Shown piece after piece: positions 5,225 to 11,300 of a stretch of DNA of 64,000 nt (position 1 is the first letter of the stretch; every line of letters starts with the position of its first letter). The notes under the pieces were generated by a model. That model was not told where the DNA came from. It did no database searches and was given only the letters and a program-made list of their open reading frames with translations. The stretch lies in NCBI GenBank assembly GCA_027490225.1, contig JAIXYK010000001.1:1-64000 (forward strand), given 5' to 3'. The position numbers and the translations under genes are program-made. The stretch is from Bacteroidota bacterium (lineage in GTDB: Bacteria > Bacteroidota > Bacteroidia > M30B66).

Positions 5225-5470
5225 ATGAAAACAAAACTCACATTAACAGTTGAAAAGAGCATTTTAGCAATTATAAAGCAATATGCTCATGACACAGGCA
5301 CAAGTGTTTCAAAACTGGTAGAAGATTTTTTTATTGATAAGGTAAAAGATAAGCCAATGAATAATAAAATTGATCCAGAAATAAAGGCTTTGATGGGAAT
5401 AATGAAAGAAAAAGATGTTGACTTAGATGCATTGAAATCTGATTACTTTAAGGAGAAATTCAAATTGTAA
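5225..5470 (+). CDS. antitoxin, DUF6364-like ribbon-helix-helix protein
   Basis: An 81-residue protein whose first 40 residues (KLTLTVEKSILAIIKQYA, then HDTGTSVSKLVEDFF) fit a ribbon-helix-helix DNA-binding fold: a short beta strand with alternating residues and two helices with the S-x-S-K-L-V-E turn. The C-terminal half (about 45-81) is charged and probably binds and covers the toxin. Its stop is one base before the toxin's ATG, so the pair is translated together. It likely represses its own promoter through the two ATACGTAT palindromes upstream. Family naming is from memory of DUF6364-type antitoxins in Bacteroidota. Confidence 0.85.
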   Translation: MKTKLTLTVEKSILAIIKQYAHDTGTSVSKLVEDFFIDKVKDKPMNNKIDPEIKALMGIMKEKDVDLDALKSDYFKEKFKL

Positions 5471-5471
5471 A

Positions 5472-5897
5472 ATGAAAGGTGTATTTATAGATACCAATGT
5501 TATCATTGATTTATTACTAGATAGAAAGCCTTTTTCTAATGATTCAGCAATGATTTTTACTTTGTCGAAAAACAAAAAGATTGAACTCTTTATAAGCGCC
5601 ATTTCAGTAAATAATGTGCATTATATTTTGAAGAAGGATTTTGGAGATACGGAGACAAGAAAAATACTAATTGGTTTATTAAAATACCTTAATGTAATAG
5701 CTGTAGAAGAAGATATTCTAAAGAAGGCATTAGTTTCAACCACTAAAGATTTTGAAGATGCTATTCAAATTTACAGTGCTGATAAGGTTTCAAGCATAAT
5801 TTATATTATATCTAGAAATACAAAGGATTTTAAAAACAGCATTAAAAAAGTAGTTACACCAAGTGATTTTTTGAAAACTGAAGGTTTTTTAGATTGA
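5472..5897 (+). CDS. PIN-domain toxin (VapC-type ribonuclease)
   Basis: A 141-residue PIN-domain protein, probably a Mg2+-dependent endoribonuclease inhibited by the antitoxin encoded just upstream. The N-terminal strand FIDTNVIIDLLL supplies the first acidic residue (D7) and the following Asn; KDFEDAIQ near residue 97 and RNTKDFKNS near residue 118 supply the rest of the acidic cluster. The second conserved acid often seen in VapC (an E after ISxxx) is not evident in ISAISVNNVHYIL, which seems usual for this Bacteroidota subgroup. It ends eight bases before the convergent TonB receptor gene, with no terminator hairpin visible. Confidence 0.88.
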   Translation: MKGVFIDTNVIIDLLLDRKPFSNDSAMIFTLSKNKKIELFISAISVNNVHYILKKDFGDTETRKILIGLLKYLNVIAVEEDILKKALVSTTKDFEDAIQIYSADKVSSIIYIISRNTKDFKNSIKKVVTPSDFLKTEGFLD

Positions 5898-8262: not shown

Positions 8263-8275
8263 TGGCATTCAGCAG

Positions 8276-8977
8276 ATGCAAACTTACTCAGAGGAAAATT
8301 ATTTAAAGCAGATTTTTAACCTTCAACAAGATGGTAAAGAGCGCATTAGCACCAGTTCATTGGCTTTAGAATTGGGTATAAATGCGGCTTCGGTTACAGA
8401 AAAACTAAAGCGATTGGCTTTGAAAAATCTGTTAGTTTATGAAAAATCAAAAGGTGTAGCATTAACCGAAGAAGGAAAATCTATTGCTGTTAGAATTATT
8501 AGGAAACACCGCATTTGGGAAACCTTTTTAGTTAAGCAGCTTCATTTTGGTTGGGAAGAAGTGCACGAAATTGCAGAGCAGTTAGAGCATATTAAGAGCG
8601 ATGCATTGATTAACCGAATTGAAGCGCAATTGGGATTTCCACGATTTGATCCACATGGGGAACCAATTCCTGATTTGAATGGAAACATCAGCAAACCTTG
8701 TTTCAAATCAATAACAGAATTGAAAGTTGGAGAAAAAGCAAGAGTAACAGGTGTAAAATCTGATGCAAGTGAATTTTTGCTTTTATTCGAGAAACTTGGA
8801 TTTTCTATAGGAACTCAAATTGAGATAATTGAAATAGAAGCATTTGATAATTCAATTCAGCTTAGTTTGAATGCAAAAGATAAAGTGAGGTTGAGCAAAG
8901 AAGTTGCTGCCATGATTTTTGCCAGTACAAAAAAGAACTGCTGCATGTTAGATGCAGGAACAGAAGCATGTAGTTAA
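8276..8977 (+). CDS. DtxR/MntR-family metal-dependent transcriptional repressor
   Basis: A 233-residue repressor that binds DNA when loaded with Fe2+ or Mn2+. It starts MQTYSEENYLKQIFNLQQ, the canonical beginning of the family, then a winged helix (to about 65), a metal-binding and dimerisation domain (about 66-135, with RKHRIWETFLV and EEVHEIAEQLEH), and a FeoA-like SH3 domain (about 150-222). The C-terminus is Cys-rich (NCCMLDAGTEACS), which is unusual and may be an extra metal site. The start at 8276 is chosen because a -7 element lies at 8255-8262. It is divergent from the TonB receptor and probably controls both. Confidence 0.92.
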   Translation: MQTYSEENYLKQIFNLQQDGKERISTSSLALELGINAASVTEKLKRLALKNLLVYEKSKGVALTEEGKSIAVRIIRKHRIWETFLVKQLHFGWEEVHEIAEQLEHIKSDALINRIEAQLGFPRFDPHGEPIPDLNGNISKPCFKSITELKVGEKARVTGVKSDASEFLLLFEKLGFSIGTQIEIIEIEAFDNSIQLSLNAKDKVRLSKEVAAMIFASTKKNCCMLDAGTEACS

Positions 8978-8994: not shown

Positions 8995-9078
8995 TTTTGG
9001 GCGCCTTTGCCAGCTTTCGCTGATACGCCCCTCGTTCCTCGGGCGGTATCACGCTCTATCTGGGGCGCGGCATTTCAG
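8995..9078. repeat. GC-rich REP-like hairpin element
   Basis: A GC-rich block in the gap behind the regulator gene. It has an imperfect palindrome GATACGCCC (about 9022-9030) / GGGCGGTATC (about 9041-9050) and outer GGGCGCC / GGGGCGCGG arms. No coding potential. It may act as a transcript-end hairpin for the regulator gene; the rest of the 8978-9127 gap shows nothing else. Confidence 0.65.
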
Positions 9079-9127
9079 GTTTGTATTGCACCAGTTGCAA
9101 GGAATTATTGTAGTTTTCTAGTTTGAA

Positions 9128-9196
9128 GCTCACATGAATTAGATTTGTGGCTCAAATAAGTGGCATTTTGAGCTTTAAATGGTACCTTTGTGAGCC
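9128..9196. promoter_or_regulatory. symmetric four-half-site operator with -7 element, Fic gene
   Basis: Four GCTCA half-sites are placed symmetrically about 9161.5: forward at 9128 and 9150, inverted (TGAGC) ending at 9173 and 9195. The outer pair reads GCTCAC/GTGAGC and the inner pair GCTCAAA/TTTGAGC. Half-sites in each arm are 22 bases apart, about two helical turns. The -7 element TACCTTTG lies at 9183-9190 between the two right-hand half-sites, so binding would block transcription. Confidence 0.7.
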
Positions 9197-9209
9197 AAAA
9201 ATTACAACA

Positions 9210-10247
9210 TTGACCGAGATTGAAATTCAAATATTAGAATTTGTAAAAACTCATCCAAGAAGTTCTTCTAAAGAAATCTTTGAGTTATTTACTAATATAA
9301 TAAGCTATTCAACAACAAAACGACAATTAAGTAAATTAGTTTCTGAAAATTTATTGGTAACAAGTGGAATTGGAAAAGGGACTAAATATTCTGTTTCCTT
9401 GTCATTTGAATTGTTGCAACCAATAGATGTAAATACCTACTTCGAAAAAGAAATTGATGAAAGGCAAATTAAAGATTCTTTTGATTTTAATGTAATAACT
9501 AACATTTTAGCTAAAAATTCACTTTTTAAAAAGGACGAAAGTTTGAAACTTTCTTTACTTCAAAATTTGTATGAAGATAATATTTCTCAGTTGTCTAAGA
9601 ATGAATATCAAAGGGAACTAGAGAGATTAGCCATAGATTTAAGTTGGAAGTCGTCGCAAATAGAAGGAAATACTTATTCATTGTTAGAGACTGAAAGGTT
9701 ATTGAAAGATAAAGAAACTGCTGCAGGAAAAACAAAAGAAGAAGCTATAATGCTCTTAAATCATAAAGATGCTTTGGATTTTATTATAGCAAATCCAGAT
9801 TATTTAAATCCCTTATCAGTTTCAAAGATTGAAGATATCCACAGTATTTTAATTAAAGACCTTGCAGTGGAAAGAAATATACGCAAACGGCGTGTTGGTA
9901 TTTCTGGTACTAATTACCGACCTTTAGATAATGAATTTCAAATAGCTGAAGCAGTGGCAGCAATGTGTGACTTAATAAATTCAAAGACGAATATTTTTGA
10001 AAAGTCACTCTTAGCATTGGTTTTATTATCTTATATACAGCCTTTTATGGATGGAAATAAACGTACCGCCAGAATAGTAAGTAATGCAATTCTTATGAAT
10101 TATAATTATTGTCCCATTTCTTTCAGAACAATTGATTCTATTGAATATAAGAAAGCAATGCTAATTTTTTATGAGCAAAATAATATCTCGAACTTCAAAA
10201 AAATATTTATAAATCAATTCGAATTTGCTGTTAATACTTATTTTTAA
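9210..10247 (+). CDS. Fic-domain protein with N-terminal winged helix; catalytic His replaced by Gln
   Basis: About 345 residues from a TTG at 9210 (MTEIEIQILEFVK); the open frame reaches back to a GTG at 9147, but a -7 element at 9183-9190 lies inside that extension. The N-terminal 65 residues look like a winged helix (PRSSSKEIFELF, TKRQLSKLVSENLL). An inhibitory helix with SSQIEGN fits the (S/T)xxxE(G/N) rule for self-inhibited Fic proteins. The Fic loop reads YIQPFMDGNKRTAR instead of HPFxDGNGRxxR: the codon at 10038-10040 is CAG, so the catalytic His is Gln. AMPylation may be lost or changed. The winged helix probably binds the symmetric operator upstream. Confidence 0.88.
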   Translation: MTEIEIQILEFVKTHPRSSSKEIFELFTNIISYSTTKRQLSKLVSENLLVTSGIGKGTKYSVSLSFELLQPIDVNTYFEKEIDERQIKDSFDFNVITNILAKNSLFKKDESLKLSLLQNLYEDNISQLSKNEYQRELERLAIDLSWKSSQIEGNTYSLLETERLLKDKETAAGKTKEEAIMLLNHKDALDFIIANPDYLNPLSVSKIEDIHSILIKDLAVERNIRKRRVGISGTNYRPLDNEFQIAEAVAAMCDLINSKTNIFEKSLLALVLLSYIQPFMDGNKRTARIVSNAILMNYNYCPISFRTIDSIEYKKAMLIFYEQNNISNFKKIFINQFEFAVNTYF

Positions 10248-11148: not shown

Positions 11149-11300
11149 TCCGTGTTTTTTTGCGGAAGATTTTATGGCACGGAGGTCACTGAGGTTGTTG
11201 CACTGAGCACACAGAGTTTTTCTCTGCGCTCAGTGCTATTTTTTGCGGAAGATTATATGGCACGGAGGTCACAAAGGTAATTGCACTGAGAGCACTGAGT
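11149..11300. repeat. two direct copies of a ~60-bp dispersed repeat
   Basis: Copies at about 11155-11216 and 11239-11299 share TTTTTTGCGGAAGATT followed by ATGGCACGGAGGTCAC and a CACTGAG-rich end. The phrase CACTGAG also occurs inverted as CTCAGTG (about 11229-11235), so a hairpin can form between the copies. This occupies most of the 10983-11359 gap; I see no gene or promoter match in the rest of it. Confidence 0.75.

What the first reader, a model, noticed from the sequence alone, without database searches (positions are those of the whole stretch)
9128..9196. Perfectly symmetric four-half-site operator in front of the Fic gene
Seen: GCTCA at 9128 and 9150, TGAGC ending at 9173 and 9195; both arms are 22 bases apart and both pairs share the centre 9161.5. 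A -7 element sits inside. Inference: the N-terminal winged helix of the Fic protein binds here as two dimers or a tetramer to control itself.
Basis: partly seen in the sequence, partly recalled or inferred. Interest (0 to 1): 0.55.

Follow-up and report, generated by a model that had tools for sequence, protein, structure and literature searches.

The report
Self-repressing Fic gene with conserved operator
Four matching DNA half-sites over the promoter of a Fic gene recur before its relatives across the Bacteroidota and change together with the protein's DNA-reading helix, so the Fic protein almost certainly binds its own gene; this is a new variant of a known kind of self-controlled gene.

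Summary
It is not chance. Of 124 distinct sequences with enough upstream DNA (window plus 123 homologues), 105 carry the same four half-sites with at most 2 of 20 bases changed; the same fit finds 0 of 138 inside the genes and 0 of 127 further upstream. The half-site is really 9 bp, TnnRGCTCA. In diverged homologues all four half-sites change in concert (GCCCA, GGACA, CGGTC, TCCTATCA) while the 22-bp spacing stays. The change goes with the recognition helix of the protein's own N-terminal winged helix (113 of 113 versus 0 of 10 rows). The window's genome has no other such operator. Best reading: the Fic protein cooperatively occupies four sites over its own promoter and represses itself. Repression, oligomeric state and inducer are inferred. 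Autorepression by a Fic-HTH protein is known (CccR), but with the HTH at the other end and two sites. This family also has Gln in place of the catalytic His, matching the motif of the published, functionally uncharacterised 'D2' clade.

The parts
9124..9132 (+). half-site 1 (outer left), TGAAGCTCA; core GCTCA 9128-9132
   Evidence: T at -4 in 103 of 105 and R at -1 in 103 of 105 homologous sites 1
9146..9154 (+). half-site 2 (inner left), TGTGGCTCA; core GCTCA 9150-9154
   Evidence: T at -4 in 96 of 105, R at -1 in 101 of 105
9169..9177 (-). half-site 3 (inner right), TAAAGCTCA on the minus strand; core TGAGC 9169-9173
   Evidence: T at -4 in 105 of 105, R at -1 in 103 of 105
9191..9199 (-). 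half-site 4 (outer right), TTTGGCTCA on the minus strand; core TGAGC 9191-9195; lies flush behind the -7 box
   Evidence: T at -4 in 104 of 105, R at -1 in 103 of 105
9183..9190 (+). -7 promoter box TACCTTTG (Bacteroidota consensus TAnnTTTG, recalled), between sites 3 and 4
   Evidence: TAnnTTT followed by G or A flush before site 4 in 70 of 104 rows with a 22-base site 3-4 spacing
9210..10247 (+). wHTH-Fic gene, start TTG 9210, 345 aa
   Evidence: Pfam Fic 54 bits against a cut-off of 24; homologues align from residue 1
9210..9395 (+). N-terminal winged-helix domain, residues 1-62
   Evidence: helices 3-14, 20-26, 33-45, strands 49-52 and 59-62; MarR-type structures at TM about 0.84 normalised by the model
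9306..9344 (+). recognition helix, residues 33-45 (YSTTKRQLSKLVS)
   Evidence: residues 33-38 co-vary with the half-site class
9651..9671 (+). inhibitory-helix motif SSQIEGN, residues 148-154
   Evidence: SxxIEGN in 136 of 139 family loci
10038..10073 (+). Fic motif QPFMDGNKRTAR, residues 277-288, Gln in place of the catalytic His
   Evidence: Gln in 55 of 55 readable near homologues from unbiased genome draws

Best explanation
The element is the operator of an autoregulated Fic gene. The N-terminal winged helix of the Fic protein reads a 9-bp half-site (TnnRGCTCA). Four half-sites are laid out as two tandem pairs, each pair 22 bp (two helical turns) apart, in mirror image around one dyad, so protomers can sit on one face of the DNA over the whole promoter: sites 3 and 4 bracket the -7 box and site 4 reaches the likely transcription start. 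Cooperative filling of the four sites shuts out RNA polymerase, so the protein keeps its own level low; fewer protomers, or a ligand or stress felt by the Fic domain, would open the promoter. Shown here: the element, its conservation and geometry, the promoter overlap, the winged-helix fold, the concerted change of the four half-sites with the recognition helix, and the lack of a second such operator in the genome. Inferred: binding, repression (not activation), cooperativity, the inducer. Because the full operator occurs only before its own gene, the useful output of the protein is probably what its Gln-type Fic domain does, not control of a regulon.
For: 105 of 124 rows with at most 2 of 20 core mismatches, 78 of them perfect; control stretches 0 of 138 and 0 of 127. 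In loci from genome draws alone, 40 of 57. Spacing of sites 3-4 is 22 in 104 of 105, sites 1-2 22 in 92 of 105, sites 2-3 19 in 85 of 105. Helix [YFIL][AST][TS]xKR goes with a GCTCA fit of 5 or less in 113 of 113 rows; the 10 rows with another helix all have a fit of 6 or more. Concerted half-sites: L079 GCCCA x4, L090 and L152 GGACA x4, L130 and L156 TCCTATCA x4 identical; 0 of 500 shuffles each. L124 (CGGTC) and L079 lie inside the GCTCA part of the Fic-domain tree. A plasmid homologue whose frame lacks most of the winged helix (L134) has no GCTCA or TGAGC in 600 bases upstream. One operator in the genome. No conserved operon partner: next gene on the same strand in 61, opposite in 54, none in 3 of 118. 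Precedent: CccR, a Fic-HTH autorepressor.
Against: No binding or expression data. The helix pattern and the fit cut-off were chosen after seeing the rows, and rows share descent. 9 of 124 rows have fits of 3-5, with a displaced or lost half-site (L046, L047, L062, L117, L145 and others; L070 has an odd left spacing). In L131 no four-part arrangement beats shuffles (182 of 500), in L128 weakly (7 of 500). Deep branches of the tree are weak and only the quick tree was finished. Three one-mismatch tandem pairs exist elsewhere in the genome, so further targets are not excluded.
Confidence: 0.85

Rival explanations
1. Another, host-encoded regulator binds the operator and controls the Fic gene; the Fic winged helix has a different target.
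For: Binding by the Fic protein itself is not measured; a DtxR/MntR-type regulator gene lies just upstream in the window.
Against: The gene is sporadic (1 of 10 genomes of the family; 41 of 395 of the class) and the operator is found with it in many families; the half-site co-varies with the Fic protein's own helix; the operator occurs once in the genome.
Confidence: 0.04
2. The Fic protein binds here but activates rather than represses, or switches between the two (upstream pair activating, downstream pair repressing).
For: The two upstream half-sites lie outside the core promoter, and the rows show no obvious -33 element (inspection), as in activated promoters.
Against: Sites 3 and 4 bracket the -7 box and site 4 overlaps the likely start point, which favours exclusion of polymerase; CccR represses.
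Confidence: 0.1
3. The inverted repeats act as a nucleic-acid structure (mRNA hairpin or cruciform), and the concerted changes are compensatory pairing.
For: Inverted half-sites can pair; changes are compensatory.
Against: Pairing does not need all four half-sites to be equal, yet they are; it does not explain 22-bp tandem spacing nor covariation with a protein helix. Arms of 5-9 bases are far apart, the element lies mostly upstream of the likely transcript, and no Rfam family matches.
Confidence: 0.01

Closest known systems
CccR of Yersinia pseudotuberculosis (PMC9755527)
   Same: One polypeptide with a Fic domain, an N-terminal-type inhibitory motif and a DNA-binding HTH; represses its own promoter through inverted repeats; binds as a dimer (passages read).
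   Different: HTH at the C-terminus, canonical His192 and AMPylation of FtsZ; operator of two 10-bp repeats 26 bp apart. Here the winged helix is N-terminal, the His is Gln, and the operator has four half-sites.
Gln-Fic 'D2' clade of Khater and Mohanty 2015 (PMC4454073)
   Same: Motif Qx[FY]x[DE][GV]NKR; bacterial; function unknown (passages read).
   Different: Described there as usually single-domain Doc-like proteins; no HTH or operator is mentioned in the passages seen. The window protein has a winged helix and an operator.
SO_4266 / SoFic (PDB 3eqx, 3zcn)
   Same: Fic core aligns at Z 23.7-23.9; the PADLOC SoFic model matches the Fic domain at 60 bits; also a winged helix in the same chain.
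   Different: Winged helix is C-terminal there and the structural match covers residues 86-345 only. Catalytic His in SoFic is recalled.
Phd-Doc autoregulated operon
   Same: Fic-fold protein under autorepression; GNKR-type motif (recalled).
   Different: In Phd-Doc a separate antitoxin binds DNA (passage); here one chain has both parts.

Membership tests
Fic/Doc (Fido) fold family | Fic domain profile and fold | tested here: met
   PF02661 54 bits (cut-off 24); FICD structures Z 25-26 over about 235 residues; model mean pLDDT 92.6
Canonical AMPylating Fic enzymes | catalytic motif HxFx(D/E)GN(G/K)R with His | tested here: not met
   Gln at the His position in 55 of 55 readable near homologues from genome draws and 80 of 80 (the latter chosen partly by that motif)
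Gln-Fic D2 clade | Qx[FY]x[DE][GV]NKR | tested here: met
   QPFMDGNKR in the window
Gln-Fic D2 clade | usually a single-domain protein | tested here: not met
   winged helix plus Fic domain; 'usually' does not exclude it. Its place in that published tree was not tested
Class II Fic (internal N-terminal inhibitory helix) | (S/T)xxxE(G/N) on a helix before the Fic core, and the second Arg of the motif | tested here: met
   SSQIEGN; E152 and R288 invariant in the 35-row alignment
CccR-type autorepressing Fic-HTH proteins | HTH in the same chain and inverted repeats at its own promoter | tested here: met
CccR-type autorepressing Fic-HTH proteins | C-terminal HTH | tested here: not met
   the winged helix is N-terminal
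CccR-type autorepressing Fic-HTH proteins | measured binding and repression | not testable with these tools
   needs gel shift, footprint and promoter fusion
Penicillinase repressor (BlaI/MecI) winged helix | Pfam PF03965 above its cut-off | tested here: not met
   20.5 bits against 22.6; the best folds are MarR-type, none at E <= 0.001
SoFic / PDC-S04 anti-phage defence | family model match over the whole protein | tested here: inconclusive
   60 and 67 bits, Fic domain only; no curated cut-off; no defence assay

The most novel reading that the evidence does not exclude
The Gln-Fic family is a roaming one-gene module, toxin-antitoxin-like in a single chain: the winged helix writes its own mobile operator code (half-site and recognition helix change together while the 22-bp tandem spacing stays), proteins assemble head to tail on two-turn-spaced sites, and release from the operator frees an unconventional Fic activity that works with Gln in place of the catalytic His, perhaps as a stress or phage response.
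Probability: 0.3. Interest if true: 0.75.

Novelty: new variant of a known kind. Interest (0 to 1): 0.5.

Why it matters
It gives a Fic clade that was noted only for its lost catalytic His a concrete, testable role: self-control through a defined four-site operator. It also gives a natural set of matched operators and recognition helices (GCTCA, GCCCA, GGACA, CGGTC, TCCTATCA) from which the recognition code of this winged helix, and why 22-bp tandem spacing is kept, can be worked out. A protein whose full operator occurs only at its own gene must earn its keep by its Fic domain, which argues that the Gln version is not simply dead.

Tried and rejected
Chance arrangement: rejected. RNA element: no Rfam match. 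Larger regulon: no second operator at up to 3 mismatches, no second inner pair at up to 1 mismatch; three tandem pairs with one mismatch elsewhere, of which by a crude ORF scan one lies just upstream of a short ORF, one lies inside an ORF and one has no ORF nearby; not pursued. Phage or plasmid origin: no relative in viral contigs; 4 phage records, all under 60% identity and about half the query; plasmids hold one near relative, without the winged helix, and distant ones. Conserved operon partner: none (the family scan used 91 neighbour proteins out of 208 listed). Distant wHTH-Fics (under 43% identity): of 22 loci examined, 7 had a repeated 8-mer that none of 60 shuffles matched and 3 more had at most 2 of 60; the others did not stand out, some because the start codon is unsure; suggestive only. 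The sigma-70 scan found no promoter at the operator, as expected for this phylum.

Faults on the way: one search scanned an empty slice (all rows 'short'); the helix pattern was shifted by one residue, so its helix tally is void and one search replaces it; one search printed minus-strand loci in the wrong orientation, redone; the careful tree did not finish and the script stopped on an error, so one search used the quick tree. Rows dropped before the counts: L134 (no winged helix), L155 (premature stop), L159 and L167 (fragments), L001 (the window itself), exact protein duplicates (134 family loci gave 125 distinct), and L020 and L052 (too little upstream DNA); L110 (helix not aligned) was dropped. 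Literature: seven searches found no paper on this operator or on an N-terminal wHTH-Fic autorepressor; only the held open-access library was searched, and papers were read in passages only.

Full report
What is there. Between the last two lies TACCTTTG (9183-9190), a match to the Bacteroidota -7 consensus TAnnTTTG (recalled). The Fic frame was listed from a GTG at 9147, inside the operator; homologues align from residue 1 at TTG 9210, 14 bases after site 4, the median distance in the family. The arrangement occurs once in the window and once in the 3.77-Mb genome at up to 3 of 20 mismatches, with 0 in the controls.

Conservation. A scan of named genome contigs gave the best 80 of 302 relatives (65-74% identity; the search patterns include the Fic motif, so this set is biased for it). 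Draws of whole genomes gave more: 16 of 395 genomes of the phylum (E 1e-20), 41 of 395 of the class (E 1e-30) and 29 of 298 of another order. After removal of fragments and duplicates 125 distinct homologues plus the window remained, 124 with enough upstream DNA. The GCTCA operator fits with 0 mismatches in 78, 1 in 22, 2 in 5, 3-5 in 9 and 6 or more in 10. In the genome draws alone, fragments included, 40 of 57 fit with at most 2 mismatches. The same fit inside the genes gives 0 of 138 and at 375-500 bases upstream 0 of 127. In the family of the window only 1 of 10 genomes has the gene: gene and operator are sporadic and are found together in many families.

Anatomy. In the 105 rows with at most 2 mismatches, sites 3-4 are 22 apart in 104, sites 1-2 in 92 (21 in 11, 23 in 2) and sites 2-3 19 in 85 (20 in 16, 18 in 4). 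Outside the core a T four bases before GCTCA is kept in 103, 96, 105 and 104 of 105 for sites 1-4, and a purine just before it in 101-103, so the half-site is TnnRGCTCA, 9 bp. A TAnnTTT(G/A) box ends flush before site 4 in 70 of 104 rows. The 22-bp tandem spacing is two helical turns; the inner spacing differs in the TCCTATCA class (11-15 against 19, though on differently placed words), so the tandem pair is the more constant unit. Some loci (L086, L089, L154, L155) hold further half-sites upstream (by inspection).

Covariation. Ten rows have another recognition helix and all have a poor GCTCA fit (6 or more); all 113 rows with the helix [YFIL][AST][TS]xKR have a fit of 5 or less (pattern and cut-off set after inspection). 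The other half-sites are again four-fold: GGACA with AKTTKR/VRTTKR (L090, L152), CGGTC with STTLKL (L124), TCCTATCA or close forms with xPT(L/I)NR (six rows), GCCCA with YTSLKR (L079, counted among the 113). Shuffles match the observed arrangement in 0 of 500 for L079, L090, L152, L124, L130, L156, L157, L133, L158 and L132, in 7 of 500 for L128 and in 182 of 500 for L131, which is therefore unsupported. On a quick tree of the Fic part (67 rows) the half-site classes need 6 changes, and L124 and L079 sit among GCTCA rows; many deep forks are weak. A plasmid relative that lacks most of the winged helix has no half-site in 600 bases.

The protein. AlphaFold2 with 35 sequences gives mean pLDDT 92.6. 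Residues 107-345 match FICD at Z about 26; residues 1-71 alone form a winged helix most like MarR (TM 0.84 by model length, E 1.7e-3 at best). The inhibitory motif SxxIEGN is kept in 136 of 139 loci. The catalytic His is Gln in 55 of 55 readable near homologues and 16 of 17 distant ones from genome draws (3 of 75 unreadable). Gln277, Asp281, Gly282, Asn283, Lys284, Arg285 and Arg288 are among the most conserved residues, as expected if a nucleotide is still bound (inference).

How it most likely works. The protein binds its own operator through the winged helix and, by filling sites 3 and 4 with help from 1 and 2, covers the promoter. This step rests on conservation and covariation, not on an assay. 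No other full operator or inner pair is in the genome, no operon partner is conserved, and neighbours are mixed, from housekeeping to defence candidates. So the Fic domain's own activity is the probable output. PADLOC models SoFic and PDC-S04 match the Fic part, which fits a defence or toxin-like role but does not show it.

Known relatives. Kinch et al. 2009 already suggested that HTH domains fused to Fic may regulate fic expression (PMC2686095, passages). CccR proves such autorepression for a protein with a C-terminal HTH and a two-repeat operator (PMC9755527, passages). Khater and Mohanty 2015 describe a Gln clade, D2, of 45 sequences without known function (PMC4454073, passages). I found no description of the N-terminal wHTH version with four half-sites in seven searches of the held library. 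I file it as a new variant of a known kind.

Noticed in passing
window 8998-9075: GC-rich dispersed repeat with an inner palindrome just upstream of the operator; 7 places in the genome, 77-83% identical to this one.
   Followed up: partly
window 5225-5897: Two adjoining small genes that look like an antitoxin and a PIN-type toxin; from the translations, by eye only.
   Followed up: no
window 11150-11300: Repeated stretches of the type 'gcacggaggtcac ... cactgag' downstream of the outer-membrane-protein gene, seen by eye.
   Followed up: no
window 8270-8977: Gene upstream of the operator is a DtxR/MntR-type metal regulator with a FeoA domain.
   Followed up: partly
L086, L089, L154, L155: More than four half-sites upstream of the Fic gene, perhaps a doubled operator.
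   Followed up: no
L091, L098, L136, L137, L138, L160, L161: Distant wHTH-Fic genes (about 27-39% identity) also have repeated words, often about 20-22 bases apart, over the region before the start; 0 of 60 shuffles each.
   Followed up: partly
L110: Homologue with a stop early in the winged helix but a perfect operator: probably a recently decayed gene.
   Followed up: no
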